Shown piece by piece: positions 3,420-52,159 of a stretch of 52,413 nucleotides of DNA. The translations under genes were made by a program, and so were the position numbers. The DNA comes from Bacteroidota bacterium (GTDB lineage: Bacteria; Bacteroidota; Bacteroidia; Cytophagales; UBA9547), in assembly GCA_004293915.1 (NCBI GenBank), contig RDZG01000080.1:1-52413 (forward strand), written 5' to 3'. The notes under the pieces were generated by a model, which saw only the letters and a program-made list of their open reading frames with translations, did no database searches and was not told the DNA's origin. The first letter of the stretch is position 1, and each line of letters begins with the position of its first letter.

Positions 3420-3989
3420 TTAAATTTTGGCTCTTATTCTACTTAATGTTTCCAAAGAAATGCCAAGGTAGGAAGCGATAATAGTAAGCGGAATGGTTTG
3501 AACGATATGTGGACTTTTATTAAAAATGTTTAAGTAACGTTCCGTAGCAGACATCGTATGAAATTGAAACAATCTATTTTCAACCCACATGCCATAATAT
3601 TCGGCAAGCATTAAATCCAAGGATAACAATTTCTGATGTTTTGCTTTAGCATCTTGAAATGCCTGGTAATGAGTTATCGAAACAGTAACATCAGTCAGGG
3701 CTTCTATAAACTCTCTGCTGGGCTGTTGTAAGGTGTAGCTATCGAACGAAATGGCTAAATCATTTTCAAAATAGAGTTCGGTTGTTATTTCTTTACCATC
3801 ATTCAAATAATATTTACGAGCAATGCCGCTAATGAGTAAATAACTTTTTCCGCAGATTTCATTTTGACGTAAAAGCAAATCGCCTTTTTTATATTTTTTT
3901 TCTGATGAAATACTTTGTAAGGCACTCAAAGTATCATTATCAAGAGCCTTAATGTAATTGTTTATTTTCTCAATGTATGATGTCATCAA
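3420..3989 (-). CDS. Crp/Fnr-family transcriptional regulator
   Basis: This 189-residue protein has an N-terminal cyclic-nucleotide-binding-type beta-roll (about residues 15-120, including KKGDLLLRQNEICGKSYLLISG) and a C-terminal helix-turn-helix ending TIIASYLGISLETLSRIRAKI. Bacteroidota genomes carry many such short Crp-like regulators, usually of unknown ligand. The residues that bind cAMP in E. coli Crp are not evident, so the effector is open. The gene converges with uxaA and is followed at its 5' side by the palindrome-rich cassette flank. No partner gene identifies its regulon. Confidence 0.85.
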   Translation of the reverse strand: MMTSYIEKINNYIKALDNDTLSALQSISSEKKYKKGDLLLRQNEICGKSYLLISGIARKYYLNDGKEITTELYFENDLAISFDSYTLQQPSREFIEALTDVTVSITHYQAFQDAKAKHQKLLSLDLMLAEYYGMWVENRLFQFHTMSATERYLNIFNKSPHIVQTIPLTIIASYLGISLETLSRIRAKI

Positions 3990-4023
3990 TTGTTTTGTTT
4001 TTTCGGTTTAGAATAGCCGATAC

Positions 4024-4152
4024 GGTTTGCAGCTTGGCGATGGCGGGGTTTATTAGCACTAAACTTTATTCGGAGAACTGAACTTCCACCTTGCACCAAT
4101 GTGTCTGCGAAGCACGGAACCCCCGCTATCGCAAACCCCTTGTTAGCGGCTG
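4024..4152. repeat. Cassette-flank inverted repeat (right side of two-gene cassette)
   Basis: Noticeably more GC-rich than its surroundings. GCGATGGCGGGGTT near 4038 pairs imperfectly with AACCCCCGCTATCGC near 4122, with outer GGTTTGC/GCAAACC extending the stem; about 70 bases separate the arms. It ends in TTGTTAGCGGCTGCC, a motif recurring inverted at about 5103-5116. A minus-strand open frame crosses it (3986-4210) but resembles no protein. I read it as noncoding boundary DNA. It resembles integron attC sites in having a long imperfect stem, yet I do not see canonical attC core sites. Confidence 0.5.
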
Positions 4153-4220
4153 CCTTGCTGTCTGTCCGAAGTTCTGGCGTTAAAAGTTTGAGAAAGATGT
4201 ATGAACTCATTGGTGATTAT

Positions 4221-4658
4221 TTATGTAGTCGCAGGTTTTTTATTAAACCACTCTCTTGCTTTTGGATAAAGAATTGTCGCAAAAGAACCTGCTACAATTA
4301 AAACTACACCAGCAGTAATTAGTAGTGTCGTCTTGGTTGAAACGTCCCCATCTTTTACCTGAAGCTCGTTACCCATCATCTCCGTTGCAATACCAATAAT
4401 TAGTGAACCCACAATGTTTATTGCTGCTGAGATAACTGAAACAAATGGAGCTGTCTTCAAATACTCATTTTCTGCTTTTAGTTCTTGGATGCCCCTTTCT
4501 TTATTTCTGTTCTCTGTCGCAATTAAGTTATGCTGGTTGATGAGCTGTCTTATTGCAATGATGTTGCCCTTGAGTTCGTCAGCAGTAATTTCCGTTATAC
4601 CGCCACCCTCATAAATTATTGAAGCGTCAATTTGAGTTGCTGTAATTTTATTAGCCAT
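4221..4658 (-). CDS. Unknown membrane protein with coiled coil and two transmembrane segments
   Basis: Not recognised. The 145-residue chain begins with a soluble portion (MANKITATQIDASIIYEGGG), then a probable coiled coil (about residues 28-68, rich in Glu, Lys, Asn and Leu). A hydrophobic segment follows at about 73-95 (VSVISAAINIVGSLIIGIA), a short polar loop, and a second hydrophobic segment at about 111-131 (LLITAGVVLIVAGSFATIL), then a basic tail. There is no signal peptide. Its start overlaps the end of the upstream minus-strand gene by 8 bases, so the two are almost certainly co-expressed. Both lie between two palindrome-rich flanks, suggesting one transferable unit. A membrane-anchored sensor or effector is possible but unproven. 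Confidence 0.7.
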   Translation of the reverse strand: MANKITATQIDASIIYEGGGITEITADELKGNIIAIRQLINQHNLIATENRNKERGIQELKAENEYLKTAPFVSVISAAINIVGSLIIGIATEMMGNELQVKDGDVSTKTTLLITAGVVLIVAGSFATILYPKAREWFNKKPATT

Positions 4659-5019
4659 TGTTGCCTCCTTCTTTTTGTTTTAACAACCAACTATAATGAA
4701 GCAACTTTCCTGCATCGTCAGCCAATGAGTAAACTCTAAAATTCAGATACAGTATTTTCTCGCCAATTGTCCCGACTTGAATAGGAACTCTGTTGCCCAA
4801 GCCAAGTGAGTTGTTGAAATTTACAAACTCAATCGTCAATGTTTTGTCGTTGGGTTGGTGTTGCGATAGTTTATGCTCAGGTTGTTCCTTGTTTGTTTTG
4901 AAAACGATTTCAAAAATAAGGTCCTCAATAAAAAACTTTATTTCCTCGTTTACATTACCAACAACTGTCCCGGAAGAATACACTTCGTATTGTCCGATGT
5001 TAATTTTAATTGGTGTCAT
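4651..5019 (-). CDS. Unknown small soluble protein, possibly DUF6864-like
   Basis: The 122-residue protein has no signal peptide or membrane segment. Its pattern of alternating hydrophobic stretches (KINIGQYEVYSSGTVVG, IEDLIFEIVFKT, TLTIEFVNFNNSLGLGN, ILYLNFRVYSLADD) predicts a mostly beta fold. From memory it resembles the family called DUF6864, with the features SSGTVV, NFNNSLGLGN and a final HYSW; I cannot confirm this. It is first in a two-gene unit and overlaps the coiled-coil membrane protein by 8 bases, which suggests translational coupling. No function can be assigned. Confidence 0.7.
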   Translation of the reverse strand: MTPIKINIGQYEVYSSGTVVGNVNEEIKFFIEDLIFEIVFKTNKEQPEHKLSQHQPNDKTLTIEFVNFNNSLGLGNRVPIQVGTIGEKILYLNFRVYSLADDAGKLLHYSWLLKQKEGGNNG

Positions 5020-5091
5020 TTTTACTATTTATATTTATCTAATTCTTGTTTGTCAAAGTTCGTTTTTAATTCTAACGGCTCAAAGTCGCAC

Positions 5092-5149
5092 TGTCGGCAT
5101 AAGGTTGCCGCTAACATTATTAATCACGCAACTTTTACCCAAAAGTTGC
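5092..5149. repeat. Cassette-flank sequence and hairpin (left side)
   Basis: Contains GGTTGCCGCTAAC (5103-5115), the inverted counterpart of the motif at the other end of the two-gene cassette, followed by a hairpin with perfect 9-base arms GCAACTTTT/AAAAGTTGC (5128-5136, 5141-5149). It lies upstream of the minus-strand gene pair. Confidence 0.5.
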
Positions 5150-5458
5150 GGCTATTTTCAATATATCTGCTAAAATAATAGTATAATTTCCAAAGATTTA
5201 CACGATTATTAAAATATTTTTTCAAATTTTAGTTTAGCATACTCGAATTTCAAAAAAAAGTATTTTTTGCGTGATGTATTTTGGCATAATATATCATTTT
5301 TACCTTAATTTATTACGTCTATACCTCCAAAAATAAGGAATAACCGCAACTTTTATAAAATGTGTTGTAATTACTTTATTGTAGTGTTTTTTAAAATCAA
5401 GATAATTATTACACTCCTGTGAAGCCCTGTTACTAAAGCCTTGTGTGGGTTGCTATAC
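5150..5458. other. AT-rich intergenic stretch
   Basis: No gene or clear structure. Short echoes of the flank sequence occur (for example ACCGCAACTTTTAT near 5345), suggesting decayed copies of the same kind of element. Confidence 0.35.
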
Positions 5459-5689
5459 CGTTCCGTGATGTCTAGCAACCGTTCTGTTATGTCTAGCAAT
5501 CGTTCCGTGACGTCTAGCAACCGTTCCGTGACGTCTAGCAACCGTTCCGTGATGTCTAGCAGTCATTGCTAGACGTCTAGCAATCGTTCCATGATGTCTA
5601 GCAATCGTTCCGTGATGTCTAGCAGTCATTGCTAGACGTCTAGCAGCCGTTTCGTGATGTCTAGCAACCGTTCCGTGATGTCTAGCAAT
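5459..5689. repeat. Tandem repeat of 21 bp, eleven units
   Basis: Eleven contiguous 21-base units with consensus CGTTCCGTGATGTCTAGCAAC, starting at 5459 and every 21 bases after, then a partial unit. Most units differ by one or two bases. Two units (5564-5584 and 5627-5647) are a distinct type, CATTGCTAGACGTCTAGC..., creating perfect palindromes of 20 bases (5565-5584) and 16 bases (5630-5645). The unit length is a multiple of three, and one frame would read SVMSSNR repeats, but the variant units introduce stop codons, so it is not one gene. It lies about 200 bases upstream of purB. Confidence 0.9.
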
Positions 5690-5845
5690 CGTTACTACAA
5701 AAATTATTTACAGCATTTTTTGCATCTAAACACAGTAAGCATTTCAATTTTTCAAAAACACATTCATAACACTTGGCAATCCAATTCGCCTAATATTGAT
5801 TACAATTCACTGAAAACTAATCTATTTCAAATAAAAGTTTTGAAC

Positions 5846-5853
5846 TATATTTG
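5846..5853 (+). promoter_or_regulatory. Probable purB promoter -7 box
   Basis: TATATTTG matches the TAnnTTTG box of Bacteroidota housekeeping promoters and lies 33 bases before the purB ATG. The expected TTTG element further upstream is poor. Confidence 0.45.
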
Positions 5854-5886
5854 CAACCTTTTTAGGATAAAACAGATTAAAAAATC

Positions 5887-7236
5887 ATGGAATTGAATGC
5901 CCTTTCTGCCATTTCGCCAATCGATGGCAGGTATAGAAAAAACACATATAGCCTTGCTGCTTATTATTCGGAATATGCACTCATAAAATACAGAGTAGCG
6001 GTAGAAATCGAATATTTTATTGCTTTGTGCGAATTGGGTGTGCCTCCTCTCCAAGATATCGACAAAAAACTTTATCCTCAAATTTGGCAAATTGCTACTG
6101 GTTTTGACGAAAAATCGGCTAACTATATCAAAGAAAAAGAAAAAACGACCAACCACGATGTAAAAGCGGTTGAATATTATGTAAAAGCTGAACTTGAAAA
6201 AATTGGTTTGGCACAATACATTGAGTTTGTGCATTTTGGATTGACTTCGCAGGATATAAATAATACTGCCATTCCGCTTTTGATTCGCGACAGTGTTGAA
6301 AACGAAATTTTGCCAAAACTAACCGAAGTTTTAACGGTTTTGAAAAAAATGGCTCGCGATTGGATGGAAACTCCCATGTTGGCACGCACACACGGACAGC
6401 CCGCCTCGCCTACTCGATTGGGAAAAGAATTTATGGTTTTTGTAGAAAGGCTCGAATCGCAGATGTCGTATATCCGAAGAATTCCGTATTCGGCAAAATT
6501 TGGTGGTGCAACAGGCAATTTCAATGCGCATCATGTGGCGTTTCCAGAAGTTGATTGGATTACGTTTGCCGACCGTTTTATAAACGAAAAATTGAGGTTG
6601 CACCGCAGCAAATACACCACTCAAATCGAACATTACGACAACACAGCCGCTCTTTGTGATGTATTTAAGCGTATTTCTACTATTTTAATAGATTTTGACA
6701 GAGATATTTGGCAATATGTTTCGATGGAATATTTCAAACAAAAAGTAAACAAAAACGAAACAGGTTCTTCGGCTATGCCGCACAAAGTAAACCCCATTGA
6801 TTTTGAAAACTCGGAAGGAAACTTGGGAATTGCCATTGCTTTGTTCGAGCATTTTGCGACAAAACTGCCCATCTCTCGCCTCCAAAGAGATTTGACCGAC
6901 AGTACTGTTTTGCGAAACATTGGTATGCCTTTTGCCCATTTGTATATTGCCTTAGAATCTACATTAAAAGGTTTAGGCAAATTGCAACTCAACCAAGCTG
7001 CCATCGACCAAGATTTGGAAAACAATTGGGCTGTGGTTGCCGAAGCCATTCAAACCATTTTGCGTAGAGAAGGCTATCCAAATCCATACGAAACGCTAAA
7101 AGATTTGACCCGAACTGGCGAAAAAATAACCCAAACTACTATTTCTGAATTTATTGATAAACTCGAAACGAGCTATTCAGTAAAAAAAGAACTGAGAGAC
7201 ATCACGCCATTTAATTATATCGGAATTGTAAAATAA
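5887..7236 (+). CDS. purB: Adenylosuccinate lyase
   Basis: Cytoplasmic purine-synthesis enzyme that cleaves SAICAR to AICAR and adenylosuccinate to AMP, releasing fumarate. The 449-residue chain begins MELNALSAISPIDGRY, typical of the E. coli-like PurB type. It carries the fumarase/lyase superfamily signature GSSAMPHKVNP near residue 293, in the flexible loop with the catalytic Ser, and the TSQDINNT and ARTHGQPASPT blocks with the active-site His. It appears full length and intact. Downstream the same strand carries a candidate R-M pair 55 bases later. Confidence 0.97.
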   Translation: MELNALSAISPIDGRYRKNTYSLAAYYSEYALIKYRVAVEIEYFIALCELGVPPLQDIDKKLYPQIWQIATGFDEKSANYIKEKEKTTNHDVKAVEYYVKAELEKIGLAQYIEFVHFGLTSQDINNTAIPLLIRDSVENEILPKLTEVLTVLKKMARDWMETPMLARTHGQPASPTRLGKEFMVFVERLESQMSYIRRIPYSAKFGGATGNFNAHHVAFPEVDWITFADRFINEKLRLHRSKYTTQIEHYDNTAALCDVFKRISTILIDFDRDIWQYVSMEYFKQKVNKNETGSSAMPHKVNPIDFENSEGNLGIAIALFEHFATKLPISRLQRDLTDSTVLRNIGMPFAHLYIALESTLKGLGKLQLNQAAIDQDLENNWAVVAEAIQTILRREGYPNPYETLKDLTRTGEKITQTTISEFIDKLETSYSVKKELRDITPFNYIGIVK

Positions 7237-7291: not shown

Positions 7292-8383
7292 ATGGAGATA
7301 ACTGGTAAAATTACGGGCATAAAATACAAAGTTCTTTTTACCGAGAACCTGAAAGAAGTTAATATTAAAAATTTTGATATTAATGAAATTCCTTCGTCTT
7401 GTTTACTAAGAAGTAACAAACATACATTTGCAATTTCAAAATGGGTTTCGCCAAAAAGAACACGTTCCTATCCTTTTGAAAGAGTATTTAACACATTGCA
7501 TATTTCAAAAAAAATCACTGTAATTCCTATTGTAAAAGATGAGGGTGAAAAAGGAGATAGAGATTTTATACAATGGGACACAGTTTCACTAATGTCATTA
7601 TTAGATGTTTTTGTAATTTTTTCTTTTTATAAAAATGCTGATAAATCAGGTTTAAAAATTACAAATCAGCAATTCGATAATGAATATGTATTATCAAAAA
7701 TAAAGGAAATTGAACAGTATCATAGTTCAGCATTGCATTGGAATCTGAACGAATTGAACAAGAATTTGCACAAGATTATAGATAAAGTAAAAACATCTTA
7801 TGCAAATATTGAACAAAACACAAAAATAAAACTGCATAATCCAAGCGGGTTAGATAATTTTAAAGAAAAAATCGGTAAAGACGTTTCACTTTTCATGGCT
7901 TTTTCAAGAGATAAAGCACAAAAAGCTCAATCAAGAGAATTTGTTACACAACAACCAAAAGAAAGTTTATCAACACTTTCAAAAGCAAAAATTACAATTA
8001 CAAATTATTTAGGAGGGCAGTATTTTTTAACTGTTGATGAAATAAAAATTGCACAAACCAAAGTACATTTAATAGAAAGTAAGCATAGTAAAAATGCTTT
8101 ATTGCCAAGTAAAGGAGATATTAAAGATGGACTGTTAAAACTAATTTTATATTCTAATCTTTCAGAGATTACAGTAAATGGAAAGAAAATTAAAAGTGAA
8201 GCCATACTCAACTTAACCACTTCAAAACTAAAAGGTTCAATAACAACTTTGAGCACAAAAAAAGAAATTTCAAACTTCTTTAATGAAAATAGTTTTTCAA
8301 CTCAACAAATAAAATTGATTGAAACTATTTTTGCTGAAGCAAAGCTTAATAATTTTATCATTCAAATACAATATTCAAAATGA
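7292..8383 (+). CDS. Candidate type II restriction endonuclease paired with a Dam-like methylase
   Basis: The 363-residue protein has no signal peptide or membrane segments. The strongest functional hint is its partner: it overlaps the adenine methylase gene by four bases (ATGA), the usual arrangement of an R-M operon. In the C-terminal half, LTVDEIKIAQTKVHLIESKHSK (read in two parts: residues 246-257 and 258-267) could supply a PD-(D/E)XK-type centre, with D249 and the E262-S-K264 triplet on a following strand. The N-terminal half has a conserved-looking SPKRTRSYPFERVFNT block (53-68) that could contact DNA. I do not recognise a named restriction-enzyme family, so the nuclease call rests mainly on context plus the ExK motif. 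The target site is unknown. Confidence 0.6.
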   Translation: MEITGKITGIKYKVLFTENLKEVNIKNFDINEIPSSCLLRSNKHTFAISKWVSPKRTRSYPFERVFNTLHISKKITVIPIVKDEGEKGDRDFIQWDTVSLMSLLDVFVIFSFYKNADKSGLKITNQQFDNEYVLSKIKEIEQYHSSALHWNLNELNKNLHKIIDKVKTSYANIEQNTKIKLHNPSGLDNFKEKIGKDVSLFMAFSRDKAQKAQSREFVTQQPKESLSTLSKAKITITNYLGGQYFLTVDEIKIAQTKVHLIESKHSKNALLPSKGDIKDGLLKLILYSNLSEITVNGKKIKSEAILNLTTSKLKGSITTLSTKKEISNFFNENSFSTQQIKLIETIFAEAKLNNFIIQIQYSK

Positions 8384-9216
8384 TAAAAAGTCCATTAAGA
8401 TACCCTGGAGGAAAAAGTAGGTCTGTAGATTTAATTTCTACAATTATTCCTGAATTTGACGAATTTAGAGAACCATTTTTGGGTGGTGGTTCTATTTTTA
8501 TTTATACCAAACAACGTTTCCCGAATAAAACATTTTGGATTAATGACCTTTATTTTGAACTATACAAGTTTTGGGAAATGACCCAAAAAGATGTTGATGC
8601 ACTTATTGAAAAAATTTATGAATGGCGTAATCAATTTCCAATAGGTAAAGAATTACATAAATTTTTGAATGAAAATTTAGCAAAATTCAACGATTTAGAA
8701 AGAGGGGCAGCCTTTTTTATCTACAATCGTATTACATTTTCAGGCACAAGTTTAAGCGGTGGTTTTAGCGAAGGAGCATTTACAGGGAGATTTACAGAAA
8801 GTAGTATTCAGCGTTTGAATCAGTTTGCAAAAGTTATTAATGGTTCTAAAATCACAAATCTTGATTATGAAGAGTTAATAAAAAAAGATGGAGAAAATGT
8901 TTTTATTTTTCTTGACCCACCATATTATTCAGCAACAAAATCTGCATTATATGGCAAAAATGGCAATATGCATAAAACCTTTGACCATGCTAAGTTTGCA
9001 GAAAACATGAAAAATTGTAAACATCAATGGCTCATAACTTACGATGATAGTGAATATATAAGAGATTTGTTTTCTTTTGCAAATATTATTCCATGGGAAC
9101 TAATGTATGGAATGAGAAATGTAACCTCAGGAGCAGACCAAGTTGGAAAAGAATTATTTATATCAAATTACTTAGAAAACCTACCTAAAAAACTACAATT
9201 ATCTTTATTTGAATAA
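8380..9216 (+). CDS. Dam-type (D12 class) N6-adenine DNA methyltransferase
   Basis: Transfers a methyl group from SAM to adenine N6 in a specific DNA site. The 278-residue chain has the D12 layout: SPLRYPGGKSR (4-14), the SAM-binding FREPFLGGGS (29-38), and the catalytic DPPYYS (179-184). The FxGxG block precedes DPPY, as in alpha-class Dam enzymes. It lacks an E. coli-like genomic context and overlaps its upstream partner by four bases, so it is best read as the protective half of a small R-M system. It ends 3 bases before the OstA-like gene, so the pair was inserted tightly between purB and that gene. The recognition site cannot be read from sequence by eye. Confidence 0.9.
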   Translation: MIKSPLRYPGGKSRSVDLISTIIPEFDEFREPFLGGGSIFIYTKQRFPNKTFWINDLYFELYKFWEMTQKDVDALIEKIYEWRNQFPIGKELHKFLNENLAKFNDLERGAAFFIYNRITFSGTSLSGGFSEGAFTGRFTESSIQRLNQFAKVINGSKITNLDYEELIKKDGENVFIFLDPPYYSATKSALYGKNGNMHKTFDHAKFAENMKNCKHQWLITYDDSEYIRDLFSFANIIPWELMYGMRNVTSGADQVGKELFISNYLENLPKKLQLSLFE

Positions 9217-9219
9217 AAA

Positions 9220-10824
9220 ATGTTATCTAAAAAATACTTGATTTTATTTTTCATATTATATTTTTCAATTGTTTACAGTCAATCCAAACGCATAGAGCTT
9301 ATAAGAGCTGATGCATTAGAAGGAACCACGTATAACAACGAGCCTGTACGAAAACTGTCTGGAAATGTGGTTTTTAAACAAGAAGATGCCCAGTTGTTTT
9401 GCGATTTGTCGTATCAATTTGTTAATCGAAATGATTTAGAAGCTTTTTCAAACATTCGCATCCTCAAAGGCGAAGGACAAAGTATCATAAATGGTGAAAA
9501 AATGATGTATTTTGGTGATGCTAAATTGGCTAAAATCACAGGTTCAAATATTATCTTAAATAGCAAAACACTTTATTTATACACAACCGTTTTGGATTAT
9601 AATACCCAAGCAGATATTTCTAATTATTACAATGGTGGAAAAGTGATAGATGATGTAAACACACTTACATCAAATTTTGGAACTTATTTTAAACAACAAG
9701 ATTTGTTTGTGTTTATAAAAAATGTGGTTTTCAAAGATGGTAAACACACTATTTATACTGATTCGCTAGATTATAACACCGTAACTCGGATTGTAAAATT
9801 TAGAGGTCCGACAACTATCATTGGTCCTGATGGAATAATGAATTCTACCAAAGGCGAATACAATTCGGCAACCAAACAATCTGATTTTCATAGTAAATCT
9901 ACTATTTATTCAAAAGATTATTCGCTCACTGCCGATAAATTATATTATAATCAATTTACAAAATACGGACTTGGCATAGGCAATGTAGTTTTGATTTCTA
10001 TTAAAGACAGTGTTACCGTTTTTGGCGATTATGGACAATATTGGGGAGATAAAGGACATACAAAAGTTTATCCACAAGCCTTGATGCAAAGTGTGAGTAA
10101 TGCTGGAAAAGACACCACTTTTTTGCGAGCCGATACGTTGCTTTCTATCAACGACACAATAAAAAAAGAAAAAAGACTTTTGGCATACAATCATGTGTTT
10201 GTATATGACAAAAAAAACATGCAAGCCATTTGCGATTCGTTGGTAAACGATGTAACAGACTCAACCACAACCTTTTTTAATGACCCCGTAATCTGGAATG
10301 GAAAGAATCAAATGCGTGGCGACACCATAAAAGCGTATTTAATGAACAAAAAAATACATCAAATAAAATTCAGAACTAAGGCTTTTATTATATCAAAAGA
10401 TACCCTTGAAAATTTCAACCAAGTGAAGGGCAAAAACATGGTTGCTTACTTCGATAGCAGCCGCATTAAGCGTGTTGAAGTATTAGAAAATGCCGAAAGT
10501 ATCTACTATGCACTGCAAGAAGATACGGCTACAAATGGCTTAAACAAAGCCGAAGCGGTAAATATGACTATTCGTTTTAAAAATCAAAAAGTAAAAACCA
10601 TTTCGTTTTATAAAAAACCAAAAGCACTTTTTATCCCTATACATGAAATAAATGACGATGTAATCCGACTTCGCGGATTCAAATGGAGAGAAGCTGAGCG
10701 TCCAAATTTAATGCAAGTTTTAGGGAAATATTACGTTAGTGAAAAAAAACGTAACATTATTAAAGTAAAGAACGTATATTTGCCAACTATTAAAAACACA
10801 TTAAAAAAGAAAAAAAATAAATGA
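9220..10824 (+). CDS. OstA-like outer-membrane biogenesis protein
   Basis: Predicted to take part in lipopolysaccharide transport across the periplasm. A signal peptide (about residues 1-20, ending FSIVYSQS) is followed by repeated beta-strand units of the LptA/OstA type: ADALEGTTY, VRKLSGNVVFKQEDAQLFCD and several similar blocks (KFRGPTTIIGPDGIMNSTKG, KLYYNQFTKYGLGIGN). The 534-residue length matches the long OstA-like proteins common in Bacteroidota rather than the short E. coli LptA. It overlaps the following small membrane-protein gene by four bases. The start follows the methylase stop by only three bases. Confidence 0.8.
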   Translation: MLSKKYLILFFILYFSIVYSQSKRIELIRADALEGTTYNNEPVRKLSGNVVFKQEDAQLFCDLSYQFVNRNDLEAFSNIRILKGEGQSIINGEKMMYFGDAKLAKITGSNIILNSKTLYLYTTVLDYNTQADISNYYNGGKVIDDVNTLTSNFGTYFKQQDLFVFIKNVVFKDGKHTIYTDSLDYNTVTRIVKFRGPTTIIGPDGIMNSTKGEYNSATKQSDFHSKSTIYSKDYSLTADKLYYNQFTKYGLGIGNVVLISIKDSVTVFGDYGQYWGDKGHTKVYPQALMQSVSNAGKDTTFLRADTLLSINDTIKKEKRLLAYNHVFVYDKKNMQAICDSLVNDVTDSTTTFFNDPVIWNGKNQMRGDTIKAYLMNKKIHQIKFRTKAFIISKDTLENFNQVKGKNMVAYFDSSRIKRVEVLENAESIYYALQEDTATNGLNKAEAVNMTIRFKNQKVKTISFYKKPKALFIPIHEINDDVIRLRGFKWREAERPNLMQVLGKYYVSEKKRNIIKVKNVYLPTIKNTLKKKKNK

Positions 10825-11450: not shown

Positions 11451-12491
11451 ATGCCAATTCGTTTCTTAGTTTTATTCTTTTACATAACTTTTTATAAATC
11501 TTTCAGCCAAATTGGTGGAAGATATGCTTTCAATTCGCTTAATTTAGCTTCTAATGCACGGGTTTTAGGAATTGGTGGTGATAATGTTTCTGTTTCAGAC
11601 AACGACCCCAATTTGTTTTTTCATAATCCAGCACTTTTAAATAAAACCATGCTTCGAAGATTGGGTGTAAATTTCAGTCCGCACATGGCTGGAATTTTTA
11701 ATACCGCACAATGCTATGCTTTTAATGTTAAAAAACTTGGGCTATTTGGCGTTGGATTAAAATTTTTAAACTATGGAAATGCAAAAAGAACGGACGAAGA
11801 TGGTGTTGAACAAGGCGGCATAGTAGAAGCATACGATATGGTTTTACAAGCATCTCATGCACGTACTTTAGGCAATTTTTCGTTGGGTGCCACATTCAAA
11901 TTGGTTGGTTCTCAAATTGCAGGATTTAGTACCTATGGCGTAGGCATAGACATGGGAGCAGTATTTAAACATCCCAAAAGAGATTTTACAATTGGATTAA
12001 CTGTACGAAATATTGGATTTGGCAAAAATGCGTTACCTATAAATGCGTTAATTGGTATGTCGTATAAGCTAGAACACATGCCTTTGCGGTTTTCGCTTAC
12101 CATTCATCATTTAAACAATTGGAATATTGCTTATTTAGATCCCAATGCAATTGTGAGTTATGATATTAATAATAACCCCATTCGAGATACTGCCACTGCT
12201 TTTACCGAAATTCCACGCCACTTGATACTTGGCGGTGAGTTTTTATTATCAAAAGGATTTAATATTCGTGTGGGATACAATCACATGCGAAGAGCCGAAC
12301 TAAAACCCGCTGAAGCCAGTATTTTATCGGGGTTTTCGTTGGGATTTATGCTTAAAGTAAAATCTTTTGAACTTGCCTATACGCGTGCATTTTTTCACCC
12401 GTCTGATGGCGTAGATATGTTGAGTTTGATTTGGTCGCTAGATAATTTTTTGAAAAAAGTAAATCCAAAAACGGTTGAAAGTGCAAATTGA
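11451..12491 (+). CDS. porQ: Type IX secretion system protein PorQ
   Basis: PorQ is an outer-membrane component needed for anchoring or processing of T9SS cargo. The 346-residue chain has a signal peptide (through about FYKSFSQ) and a beta-barrel-type body. Characteristic blocks include IGGRYAFNSLNLASNARVLG at the mature N-terminus, NDPNLFFHNPALL, FGVGLKFLNYGNAKRTDEDG and FTIGLTVRNIGFG. It is a solitary gene here, preceded by REP elements. Its presence agrees with the T9SS sorting domains on four other loci in the window. Confidence 0.9.
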   Translation: MPIRFLVLFFYITFYKSFSQIGGRYAFNSLNLASNARVLGIGGDNVSVSDNDPNLFFHNPALLNKTMLRRLGVNFSPHMAGIFNTAQCYAFNVKKLGLFGVGLKFLNYGNAKRTDEDGVEQGGIVEAYDMVLQASHARTLGNFSLGATFKLVGSQIAGFSTYGVGIDMGAVFKHPKRDFTIGLTVRNIGFGKNALPINALIGMSYKLEHMPLRFSLTIHHLNNWNIAYLDPNAIVSYDINNNPIRDTATAFTEIPRHLILGGEFLLSKGFNIRVGYNHMRRAELKPAEASILSGFSLGFMLKVKSFELAYTRAFFHPSDGVDMLSLIWSLDNFLKKVNPKTVESAN

Positions 12492-12530
12492 TATAAAGTC
12501 TAACAAATATTTACAAATTCCTTGATAACT

Positions 12531-12671
12531 TTTCCCCAATGGGGAAATAAGAAAGGGGTTTTATAAAAAATTAATTGTAAATCAATGTCGTTTATTTAAG
12601 CTTCCTTATGTCTTTCTCCTTTGGGGAAAGATTAAGATAGGGGCTAATAAAACGCTTAACTAAACGACATT
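12531..12671. repeat. Composite inverted-repeat element after porQ
   Basis: Outer arms of 18 bases with one mismatch (12584-12601 and 12654-12671; AATGTCGTTTA at the left) enclose an inner hairpin CTTTCTCC/GGGGAAAG (12612-12630). Just left of it is another hairpin TTTCCCC/GGGGAAA (12531-12547) with the similar tail AATAAGAAAGGGG. It lies between the convergent porQ and outer-membrane-protein genes and could terminate both, or be a short nonautonomous mobile element. Confidence 0.65.
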
Positions 12672-12706
12672 AAATTGTAAATATAAATTAGACTCAATAT
12701 AAAAAA

Positions 12707-13507
12707 TCACCTCAACCCATAGTATAAAGTTGCAAAAAGAGACAAAAACAAGTTTCTATTTTCGGCATAAACCATTTGTGGCATGGTTCTAAAATAGGTT
12801 TCAGACATTACACCAATTTCGACTCCTGCGACTGAGTTTCTAATACCATACTCAAAGTTTAAAGAAGCTTTAGCATGTATTCCCAAATATGGAACCATGC
12901 TTCCAAAACCTGAAAAAACACCAGCATTTCCAACTATTTTGTTAGTGTTAATTTGATTTGCATTTTCTGCTGTAAAATGTGCTTGTCTAATGTAAGTTTG
13001 GTCTATAAAACCTTCTTGAATATTTGGATAAAAAGTTCTATCATCTTCCGTAGAATACTCTATGATATATGGTTTCATATATCCAATTGAAGGACCAACA
13101 GCACCTATAAAACTTACTTGAATTCCTTCTTCTGCGGCTTTATTAAAAAGTATAATTTCCTTTCCAAAATGTGGACGAATTACTAATAAATCATTAGATT
13201 TCCCATATGAATAACTACCCAAAATCGAACGTGTACTTTTTTCTTTGTGATGTTCAACATGCACCAAATCTAAACCAATCAAATAATAATTTCCATTCGA
13301 TTCTTTTTTTTGCCAAGAATATTTAAAAGAAAATCCTGCTAAAATCCCACCATTGGTTGCCCATTGCAAACCGTATGTAAATTCTCTTTCGTGATGTTCT
13401 GATTCTTCTTTTTCTATTCCATTATCTTTTGGGGCAACAAATCGCTCTTCTTGTGCATTTACAAAAACTGTAATTAAAAAAAACAATAAAAATAAATTTC
13501 TTATCAT
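12707..13507 (-). CDS. Predicted outer-membrane protein of unknown function
   Basis: Not recognised. I chose the ATG at 13507 (MIRNLFLLFFLITVFVNAQ), which gives a clean signal peptide and overlaps the manA stop by four bases (ATGA); a longer start at 13522 adds five residues. The 266-residue protein has alternating beta-strand segments (YGLQWATNGGILAGFSFKYSW, YYLIGLDLVHVEHH, SLNFEYGIRNSVAGVEIGV) and ends in the aromatic-rich LFLSLFATLYYGLR, typical of an outer-membrane beta-barrel. Coupling to manA is probably only organisational. Confidence 0.72.
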   Translation of the reverse strand: MIRNLFLLFFLITVFVNAQEERFVAPKDNGIEKEESEHHEREFTYGLQWATNGGILAGFSFKYSWQKKESNGNYYLIGLDLVHVEHHKEKSTRSILGSYSYGKSNDLLVIRPHFGKEIILFNKAAEEGIQVSFIGAVGPSIGYMKPYIIEYSTEDDRTFYPNIQEGFIDQTYIRQAHFTAENANQINTNKIVGNAGVFSGFGSMVPYLGIHAKASLNFEYGIRNSVAGVEIGVMSETYFRTMPQMVYAENRNLFLSLFATLYYGLR

Positions 13508-19244: not shown

Positions 19245-19778
19245 ATGATACTCAATCAAGAATTTGTAGTTTTGGTAAACGAAAGCGATGAAGAAATAGG
19301 TACGATGGAAAAAATGCAAGCTCACCAAGAAGGGCAATTGCATCGGGCATTTTCGATTTTTATTTTTAATGATAAAAATCAACTTTTATTACAAAAACGA
19401 AATCCTAAAAAATATCATTCTGGCGGACTTTGGACAAACACTTGCTGTGGACATCCTCGTCCGGGTGAAAAAAACAAAGAAGCTGCAATCCGAAGATTAA
19501 AAGAAGAAATGGGTTTTACTACATTACTCCAAAAAGAATTTGGATTTATTTACAAAGCTAATTTCGAAAACGGACTTACGGAATACGAATTCGACCATGT
19601 TTATTATGGCAAATTTAAGAATTACCCAGAACCAAATTCGTTAGAAGTTTCAGATTGGAAATATATGGATTGGGATAAACTTGTTGAAGATATTGAAATA
19701 AATCCGCAAAATTATACTGTTTGGTTCAGGATTTGTGTCGATAAAATTTCTGACAGAATGTTGATGCAATATGCTTGA
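19245..19778 (+). CDS. idi: Isopentenyl-diphosphate delta-isomerase, type 1
   Basis: Nudix-fold enzyme that interconverts IPP and DMAPP, supplying isoprenoid building blocks. The 177 residues contain HRAFSIFIFN with a metal-ligand His, TNTCCGHPRPGE with the catalytic Cys and further His, and the Nudix-like AAIRRLKEEMGF. All expected blocks are present. The stop codon (19776-19778) lies inside the first unit of a TTGATAG tandem repeat. The gene sits between the crtB-linked unknown gene and crtZ, consistent with carotenoid supply. Confidence 0.95.
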   Translation: MILNQEFVVLVNESDEEIGTMEKMQAHQEGQLHRAFSIFIFNDKNQLLLQKRNPKKYHSGGLWTNTCCGHPRPGEKNKEAAIRRLKEEMGFTTLLQKEFGFIYKANFENGLTEYEFDHVYYGKFKNYPEPNSLEVSDWKYMDWDKLVEDIEINPQNYTVWFRICVDKISDRMLMQYA

Positions 19779-19890
19779 TAGTTGATAGTTGATAGTTGAT
19801 AGTTGATAGTTGATAGTTGATAGTTGATAGTTGATAGTTGATAGTTGATAGTTGATAGTTGATAGTTGATAGTTAGTTGATAGTTGATAG
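19775..19890. repeat. Heptanucleotide tandem repeat (TTGATAG)
   Basis: Fourteen perfect, contiguous TTGATAG units (19775-19872), a TTAG interruption, and two more units (19877-19890). The first unit contains the idi stop codon. The unit holds stop codons (TGA, TAG) and so cannot be read through on the plus strand. It is followed by a CTTTGCGACTTTGCAAC stretch (from about 19914) of the kind common between genes in Bacteroidota, then crtZ at 19971. Perfect homogeneity implies recent slippage and probable length variation. Confidence 0.95.
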
Positions 19891-19970
19891 TTGTATAAAA
19901 TAATAAAAATTTCTCTTTGCGACTTTGCAACTTTGCGAGACTAAAATTTTAAAAATAATTCATAATTCCT

Positions 19971-51704: not shown

Positions 51705-52159
51705 ATGATTTATAAAATAAGCGATAAAGGGTTTAAACGAATATCTAACTCTAAGAAATTTATTTTTTTTTCTGTCATTTTTTTTCCAGTTTTTTGGTGG
51801 ATTTGTTTGAGAGACTTTATAAATGATGCTAATAAAGATTACATTTCTACAATATTTATTTGCTTAATAACCTTACTAGTATTATTTTTTCTATTTGCCC
51901 TTAACAGGAAAGAATATTTCACCAGCATTTCAGCTATAATAAAGATGAATATTGAGGAGGAATATATTGATTTTGAGACACTTAATACATTTAAAAATAA
52001 TGAAAGAATCATAAGCATAATTTAAAAGACTTTCAAATTTCATTTGAAAAGGATAGAAACTTTGGGATTTTAATATTAAAATCCCAATCAAAAAAGTTTT
52101 TTATTTTTGAAGAGTTTTATGGTGAATCTTTTAATGAAATTAAGTCTTTAATGTCTTAA
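51705..52159 (+). pseudogene. Frameshifted membrane protein, possibly an immunity-type protein
   Basis: Starts at the ATG 51705 (MIYKISDKGFKRISNSKKFI) and reads two hydrophobic segments (FIFFSVIFFPVFWWICL, YISTIFICLITLLVLFFLFAL) followed by a soluble part. The frame stops at 52022-52024, but another frame continues directly with KDFQISFEKDRNFGILILKS and ends FNEIKSLMS at 52157-52159. One deleted base, or two inserted, around 52000-52025 joins them into about 150 residues. The layout of two membrane segments plus a C-terminal beta domain, directly behind a toxin-like tail, fits an immunity protein, but no family is recognised. Confidence 0.55.

What the first reader, a model, noticed from the sequence alone, without database searches (positions are those of the whole stretch)
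5459..5689. Minisatellite of 21 bp whose variant units create perfect palindromes
Eleven tandem units with period 21, two of which convert part of the unit into a 20-base and a 16-base palindrome (5565-5584, 5630-5645). The alternation of ordinary and palindromic units is not explained by simple slippage. Two helical turns per unit could phase binding sites or nucleoid proteins. The repeat lies directly upstream of purB and next to the unknown cassette.
Basis: seen in the sequence. Interest (0 to 1): 0.55.

Follow-up and report, generated by a model that had tools for sequence, protein, structure and literature searches.

The report
Inverted, dispersed 21-bp repeat array
A short stretch of apparently non-coding DNA repeated eleven times sits beside a decayed gene-capture (integron-like) region; it is real, has a flipped sister copy in the same genome and unexpected look-alikes in a distant bacterium, but nothing shows that it does a job for the cell.

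Summary
The array is real: 11.3 units of 21 bp at 5457-5693 with perfect 20- and 16-bp palindromes. It is not unique: a 10.5-unit sister array and a 58-bp remnant lie on two other contigs of the genome. The sister shares the neighbouring 320-bp flank at 91%, but its array is inverted relative to that flank. The flank holds the degenerate start of an integron-type tyrosine recombinase gene; cassette genes with attC-like sites follow. The two congeners' matching loci lack the array, and order and phylum samples showed no other member. Coding is unlikely. Palindromic units are one of two unit types and are imperfect in the sister. Best reading: an intergenic minisatellite at the edge of a decayed integron platform; palindromes from quasipalindrome template switching or an old unit type. 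Surprise: a Methylococcaceae MAG holds three related 21-bp arrays plus two degenerate ones, far above permuted controls for the three. Protein binding is neither shown nor excluded.

The parts
5457..5693 (+). 21-bp minisatellite, 11.3 units, consensus ACCGTTCCGTGATGTCTAGCA
   Evidence: TRF; unit table
5565..5584 (.). 20-bp perfect palindrome in palindromic-type unit 6
5630..5645 (.). 16-bp perfect palindrome in palindromic-type unit 9
5542..5667 (+). two tandem 63-bp blocks (units 5-7 and 8-10), 92% identical, each with one palindromic unit
   Evidence: (period 63)
5105..5425 (-). flank shared at 91% with G000:C143:168736-169058, where the neighbouring array is inverted
5215..5358 (-). degenerate upstream region and start of a tyrosine recombinase gene (75% to L077 7879-8024; that gene is intact in G001)
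5105..5137 (-). cassette-start motif, 91% over 33 bp to L077 10062-10094, where a cassette gene follows
4651..5019 (-). cassette gene, DUF6864
4221..4658 (-). cassette gene, no family found in Pfam or NCBIfam
4007..4166 (-). attC-like site between cassettes (92% over 133 bp and 77% over 145 bp to inter-cassette sites in G001; 76% over 147 bp to one in G000:C40)
3420..3989 (-). probable cassette gene with cNMP-binding domain (Crp/Fnr-like regulator)
5846..5853 (+). TAnnTTTG promoter-like match between array and purB (consensus recalled)

Best explanation
A non-coding intergenic minisatellite at the outer edge of a decayed integron-like platform. Shown: it is a tandem array; flank and array occur together twice in the genome with the array inverted; no relative searched has it; the open frame through it shows no protein-coding constraint. 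Inferred: the array was copied with its flank, grows and homogenises by unequal exchange or slippage of one- and three-unit blocks, and carries palindromic units because the ordinary unit is a quasipalindrome that template switching can convert to a perfect palindrome (or because the palindromic unit is the older type). Inverted half-units inside the array would also let segments flip. No function for the cell is needed to explain it; any effect on transcription of purB or nuoD would be incidental.
For: Array, palindromes and 63-bp blocks. Sister array on C143 and remnant on C137. The sister matches the window array in unit order: 91.7% over 8 units in the best register against an 83.4% mean of all unit pairs; 157 of 5000 order shuffles reach this. 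Shared flank at 91% with the array inverted. Palindromic-type units of the window differ from ordinary ones at columns 3, 6, 8 and 9; the changes at 6, 8 and 9 make the left arm complementary to the right in both units, the one at column 3 does so in unit 6 only and is absent from the C143 units (unit and pairing tables). This is the signature described for quasipalindrome template switching (PMC7202029, outline with abstract; PMC8604942, outline with abstract). The congeners' purB and nuoD loci and the C137-like loci lack the array. Recombinase, ssb, cassette and attC-like context. Open minus frame: 3 synonymous and 9 nonsynonymous differences.
Against: The direction of change (ordinary to palindromic, or the reverse) is not settled; the related arrays in another phylum carry the palindromic core too, which favours it being old. 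The 63-bp period is not significant by unit-order shuffles (685 of 5000). RNA folding of the array is stronger than in all 200 shuffles each (z -5.0 and -4.1; sister -3.8), which tandem near-palindromes give anyway but which could mean function. Similarity to arrays in a Methylococcaceae MAG is not explained by a purely local origin.
Confidence: 0.6

Rival explanations
1. MITE-like mobile element with a minisatellite core, like BrickBuilt of Porphyromonas gingivalis: leader, tandem repeat, tail with terminal inverted repeats, moved by an IS transposase.
For: Dispersed, intergenic and found in no relative searched, similar unit length, in a genome that carries a PorP/SprF protein, so probably Bacteroidota; a shared 320-bp flank acts like a leader at two loci. 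The related Methylococcaceae arrays do look like leader-array-tail: L147 and L148 align through the array and about 85 bp of right-hand tail, L148 and L149 share 127 bp at the other end at 87%.
Against: Around the 3 arrays of this genome no terminal inverted repeats at window and C143, one AT-rich 10-of-12 match at C137, and only AT-rich 7-bp direct matches. No shared tail among them was found. Array orientation differs relative to the flank.
Confidence: 0.2
2. Cluster of phased binding sites (operator- or iteron-like) for a dimeric DNA-binding protein; palindromic units are the strong sites, and 21 bp puts units on one face of the helix.
For: Two helical turns per unit; columns 13-20 nearly invariant across 21 units of two arrays (5 deviating letters in... 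columns 15 and 17: 2 and 1 units); the same palindromic core recurs in another phylum. A Crp/Fnr-like gene lies 1.5 kb away in the window.
Against: Exact core absent elsewhere in the genome; palindromic-type units broken in the sister array; left and right arms do not co-vary in 36 Methylococcaceae units (4252 of 5000 shuffles reach the observed pairing); the Crp-like gene has no counterpart among the two cassette genes beside the sister array.
Confidence: 0.1
3. Remnant of a protein-coding heptad repeat (7 codons per unit).
For: 21 bp keeps frame; one minus-strand frame is open in the 168 bp compared between the two arrays (0 stops), and the Methylococcaceae arrays also have open frames.
Against: In that frame 9 of 12 differences between the two arrays are nonsynonymous; the sister array has a stop in its last unit (read); in the window the frame ends where the array ends, and I saw no start codon at its head (read).
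Confidence: 0.05
4. Transcribed hairpin element of the integron region (insulator or terminator between the recombinase and cassette region and the host gene).
For: Lies between divergent units at two loci; strong folding on both strands.
Against: No terminator-like site in the array (the one hit of 5000-5950 is at 5127-5150); no Rfam match near gathering score (best 28.5 bits against 65, E 0.009); the C137 remnant is not next to the shared flank.
Confidence: 0.05

Closest known systems
BrickBuilt, minisatellite within a MITE, Porphyromonas gingivalis (PMC4596501; outline with abstract, sections 5 and 8, and part 1 of section 7 seen)
   Same: Intergenic, dispersed tandem array of similar unit length (23 nt there, 21 here), imperfect units, narrow host range, predicted to fold.
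   Different: BrickBuilt has 19 copies in one strain, with leader, tail and IS5-like terminal inverted repeats; here 2 arrays plus a remnant, no terminal inverted repeats found, array inverted relative to its flank, two unit types.
Quasipalindrome-associated template-switch mutation (PMC7202029 and PMC8604942, outlines with abstracts; PMC3820800, passages)
   Same: Imperfect inverted repeat turned into a more perfect one by clustered changes in one arm.
   Different: Here inferred from static sequence; direction not proven.
Integron or cassette array with attC sites and integrase
   Same: Cassettes in one direction, attC-like sites at cassette ends, recombinase gene start nearby.
   Different: In the window only the degenerate start of the recombinase gene remains; the 21-bp array is not an integron part that I know of (recalled).
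REP/BIME palindromic repeats (PMC3733652 and PMC2817692, search listing with start of abstract only)
   Same: Short extragenic palindromes.
   Different: Tandem 21-bp array at 3 places rather than many dispersed REPs; no REP-associated transposase gene was looked for.

Membership tests
Intergenic minisatellite (VNTR-type array) | head-to-tail units of about 10-60 bp | tested here: met
   21 bp x 11.3
Intergenic minisatellite (VNTR-type array) | non-coding position | tested here: met
Intergenic minisatellite (VNTR-type array) | unit number varies among strains | not testable with these tools
   one genome per species; no relative searched carries the array
MITE with minisatellite core (BrickBuilt-like) | terminal inverted repeats | tested here: not met
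   none at window and C143 within 70 bp on each side; one 10-of-12 AT-rich match at C137
MITE with minisatellite core (BrickBuilt-like) | target-site duplication | tested here: inconclusive
   only AT-rich 7-mers
MITE with minisatellite core (BrickBuilt-like) | conserved leader and tail around the array | tested here: inconclusive
   shared flank on one side at two loci; no shared tail seen
Iteron or operator array | replication or regulator gene beside the array, or the same sites elsewhere in the genome | tested here: inconclusive
   exact core only in the array; no Rep-like gene among the 5 cassette genes scanned at the two loci, but one is Crp/Fnr-like
Iteron or operator array | protein binding | not testable with these tools
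   needs experiment
Integron (context) | attC-like sites at cassette ends | tested here: met
   by similarity among inter-cassette sequences only; folding and activity not tested
Integron (context) | integron integrase (TIGR02249) above cut-off | tested here: not met
   214 and 191 bits against a cut-off of 265; NF040815 (XerA/integron integrase) passed by the G001 protein (221 against 220) and missed by the C40 protein (202)
Coding repeat | excess of synonymous differences in an open frame | tested here: not met
   3 synonymous, 9 nonsynonymous

The most novel reading that the evidence does not exclude
The 21-bp array belongs to a horizontally spread family of tandem near-palindromic arrays shared by distant phyla (this genome and a Methylococcaceae MAG), whose palindromic unit is a conserved recognition site for an unknown dimeric recombinase or nucleoid protein and whose inverted half-sites make the array invertible; the two oppositely oriented sister arrays would be two states of it.
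Probability: 0.1. Interest if true: 0.65.

Novelty: new member of a known kind. Interest (0 to 1): 0.33.

Why it matters
Mostly as a clean example of how a bacterial minisatellite is copied, inverted and given palindromic units at the edge of a decaying integron platform. The one open question with wider reach is why arrays with the same 21-bp period and palindromic core occur several times in a genome of another phylum. I did not search the literature for the sequence itself; the titles listed by my searches on minisatellites, MITEs and palindromic repeats name no such repeat.

Tried and rejected
Rfam scan: three sub-threshold matches (plant microRNAs and a snoRNA; best E 0.009, 28.5 bits against a gathering score of 65), taken as chance. 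The 16-bp core TGCYAGACGTCTRGCA in viral contigs: 21 loci, 22 places, none inside a 21-bp array by TRF. Phage and plasmid collections: no match to the window array or to the Methylococcaceae array. Exact ordinary-unit pattern: 0 in genome contigs and 0 in viral contigs. Order sample: 10 of 390 genomes match at up to 3 mismatches, the own genome and nine with a single 3-mismatch hit; the reversed control pattern hit singly in about 20 genomes. Phylum sample: 4 of 395; the three others have 2-mismatch hits, of which those in G558 and G413 look like 21-bp repeats of other sequence (read from the printed matches, not examined further).

Compensatory change as a sign of selected palindromes: two Methylococcaceae palindromes looked compensatory, but arms did not co-vary over 36 units, so I dropped the idea. 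The script chose units with at least 8 of 12 matches to a template; of the five stretches, L151 was not given to it.

Limits of the Methylococcaceae evidence: the reversed control pattern gave more hits (60 and 50) than the pattern itself (30 and 22) at up to 2 mismatches, so that count proves nothing; the case rests on the clustered 0- and 1-mismatch hits, TRF (which called L147, L148 and L149 but neither L150 nor L151) and the alignments. L150 and L151 are 97% identical to each other over 495 bp and may be one element seen twice.

A mistake: the pattern had a spacer one base too long, so the 311-genome search of the order of the Methylococcaceae MAG says nothing about arrays there (37 of 311 genomes had hits, apparently chance); it used the last genome search. 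The corrected pattern was run only on viral contigs (2 loci, local score to the window array 26 each against 40-95 for the Methylococcaceae stretches; one of them, L196, lies in about three 21-bp repeats of other sequence, read) and on the fetched loci.

The nuoD orthologs in the two congeners have other upstream genes, so no shared insertion site could be seen there. For C137 only the right-hand gene is conserved in G002 and G001, so no empty site can be cut exactly.

Full report
Observation. The array is as described. TRF reports 5457-5693, period 21, 11.3 copies, 82% matches, no indels, and a better-scoring 63-bp period (88% matches). The two perfect palindromes are at 5565-5584 and 5630-5645. 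In simulations with the array's own dinucleotide make-up, two palindromes of 16 bp or more never occurred in 3000 trials and one or more in 0.37%, although in the AT-rich window as a whole palindromes of that size are common (4 observed, mean 2.9 in 60 simulations).

Units. In register there are 9 ordinary units (near CCGTTCCGTGAYGTCTAGCAA) and 2 palindromic ones, TCATTGCTAGACGTCTAGCAR (units 6 and 9). Units 5-7 and 8-10 are 58 of 63 bases identical, so duplication of a three-unit block explains the alternation without a special mechanism. A shuffle of unit order reaches the observed lag-3 similarity in 685 of 5000 trials, so this is the simplest explanation and not a demonstrated one. The ordinary unit is a quasipalindrome about GAYGTC (4 to 7 of 11 pairs in most ordinary units). 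The palindromic type differs in the left arm at columns 3, 6, 8 and 9. The changes at 6, 8 and 9 create complementarity to the right arm in both units; the one at column 3 does so in unit 6 only and is missing from the sister array. That is the pattern described for template-switch correction of quasipalindromes (PMC7202029, outline with abstract; PMC8604942, outline with abstract; PMC3820800, passages). The same pattern would arise if the palindromic unit were ancestral and the ordinary left arm had decayed; I cannot tell which.

Sister arrays. The same genome has a second array of 10.5 units on contig C143 (169060-169280; L028 5061-5281) and a 58-bp remnant on C137 (15809-15866). A 19-base unit pattern at up to 3 mismatches found units only at these three places (18 matches; the reversed control gave 1), and the exact core GCTAGACGTCTAGC occurs only in the window array. 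Window and C143 arrays share unit order: 91.7% over 8 units in the best register against 83.4% for all unit pairs, reached by 157 of 5000 order shuffles; BLAST gives 92.8% over 166 bp. In C143 both palindromic-type units carry a G in the right arm that breaks the palindrome, so perfect palindromes are not strictly maintained.

Flank and inversion. The flank 5105-5425, which ends 31 bp before the window array, is 91% identical (294 of 323 columns) to the stretch directly before the C143 array, in the same orientation, but the array that follows is on the opposite strand. The layout is the same at both loci: two unrelated pairs of genes on the minus strand, the shared flank, the array, and then a host gene on the plus strand (purB-like in the window, nuoD-like on C143; names recalled). 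Flank and array were therefore copied together and one array inverted, or the array re-entered in the other orientation.

What the flank is. Part of it (5215-5358, minus) matches the upstream region and start of a 454-aa tyrosine recombinase gene in a congener (75% over 151 columns to L077 7879-8024; gene at 7938-9302). That protein hits Phage_integrase and, among named families, XerA/integron integrase NF040815 (221 bits, cut-off 220) and integron integrase TIGR02249 (214 bits, cut-off 265, not met). In the window only a degenerate start remains. Next on the minus strand come a cassette-start motif (5105-5137), two genes and an attC-like site at 4007-4166 that is 92% identical over 133 bp to an inter-cassette site in the congener. 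The C143 locus likewise ends in a site 86% identical over 129 bp to one between genes of contig C40. attC folding and activity were not tested.

Distribution. The purB and nuoD loci of the two congeners have other upstream genes and no array, and the C137-like loci of G002 and G001 lack it. Of 98 genomes (own included) at up to 2 mismatches only the own genome matched. In the order sample (390, own included) nine others had one 3-mismatch hit each, at the level of the control; in the phylum sample (395) three others had 2-mismatch hits, two of them in 21-bp repeats of other sequence. No array of this family was seen in phages, plasmids or viral contigs. Records very near the own genome may be left out of the public collections.

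A surprise. A degenerate pattern scanned for exact matches over the collection of 84,980 species genomes found one stretch, in a Methylococcaceae MAG (JAQTSI010000006.1). It lies in an array of 10.9 units of 21 bp (61% matches), better described as 5.7 units of 42 bp (72%), that contains TTGCTAGACGTCTAGCAG. TRF calls such arrays on three contigs of that genome (L147, the same locus; L148; L149); two further stretches (L150, L151) are degenerate, were not called by TRF and are 97% identical to each other, so they may be one element. Local alignment scores to the window array are 95, 66, 73, 46 and 40. Column-permuted controls never reached them (0 of 300 each), nor did controls that kept the TCTAGCA columns used for finding them (0 of 500 each); for L150 the best control, 44, came close to its 46. 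The reversed control gave more hits than the pattern, so I rest on the alignments alone. The similarity of the three main arrays is real; whether it is descent, transfer or convergence is open. Left and right arms do not co-vary in 36 units of four of the five stretches, which speaks against selection for perfect palindromes.

Coding and structure. One minus-strand frame is open over the 168 bp compared, but 9 of 12 differences between the two arrays are nonsynonymous in it, and the sister has a stop in its last unit (read), so a coding role is unlikely. Both strands fold better than 200 of 200 shuffles (z -5.0, -4.1; sister -3.8), as expected of tandem near-palindromes. The only terminator-like site in 5000-5950 is outside the array. 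The only plus-strand TAnnTTTG match between array and purB is at 5846, and on C143 there is one at L028 5345 before nuoD (consensus recalled), so at both places the array seems to lie upstream of the promoter.

Comparison. The nearest published thing that I found is BrickBuilt of P. gingivalis, a 23-nt minisatellite inside a MITE with leader, tail and IS5-like terminal repeats (PMC4596501; outline, sections 5 and 8 and part 1 of 7; also named in a review, PMC10969869, passages). The window array resembles it in kind but fails the terminal-repeat test and has no shared tail. I file it as a minisatellite at the edge of an integron relic, not as a MITE.

Verdict. Observation confirmed; interpretation partly supported; ordinary in kind, with two unusual points: the inversion relative to a common flank, and the related arrays in another phylum.

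Noticed in passing
L078 (G000:C40) 12046-13446; L077 (G001:C37) 7938-9836: An integron-type tyrosine recombinase gene is followed by an SSB gene (PF00436), 3 bp apart in C40, and then by genes with attC-like sites between them. An SSB gene beside the integrase would be interesting because SSB melts folded attC sites (PMC8946536, passages).
   Followed up: partly
window 19775-19893: Heptanucleotide array TTGATAG, 17.4 copies.
   Followed up: no
window 52062-52087: 26-bp perfect palindrome TTGGGATTTTAATATTAAAATCCCAA.
   Followed up: no
L149 (G390:C195) about 1674-1820: One Methylococcaceae array is interrupted by an insert whose ends look like inverted repeats (AGAGTTGTTCCCG / CGGGAACAACTCT), a possible MITE inserted into the minisatellite (read).
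   Followed up: no
L068 1260-1400 (G000:C40): Repeat of the type TCATTGCGAGGG...AAGCAATCTC next to the recombinase region; similar repeats are recalled from many unrelated genomes.
   Followed up: no
window 5416-5457: Left of the array, GTTACTA and GTTGCTA lie 20 bp apart in the opposite orientation to the units, as if old inverted units remained beside the flipped array (read, not tested).
   Followed up: no
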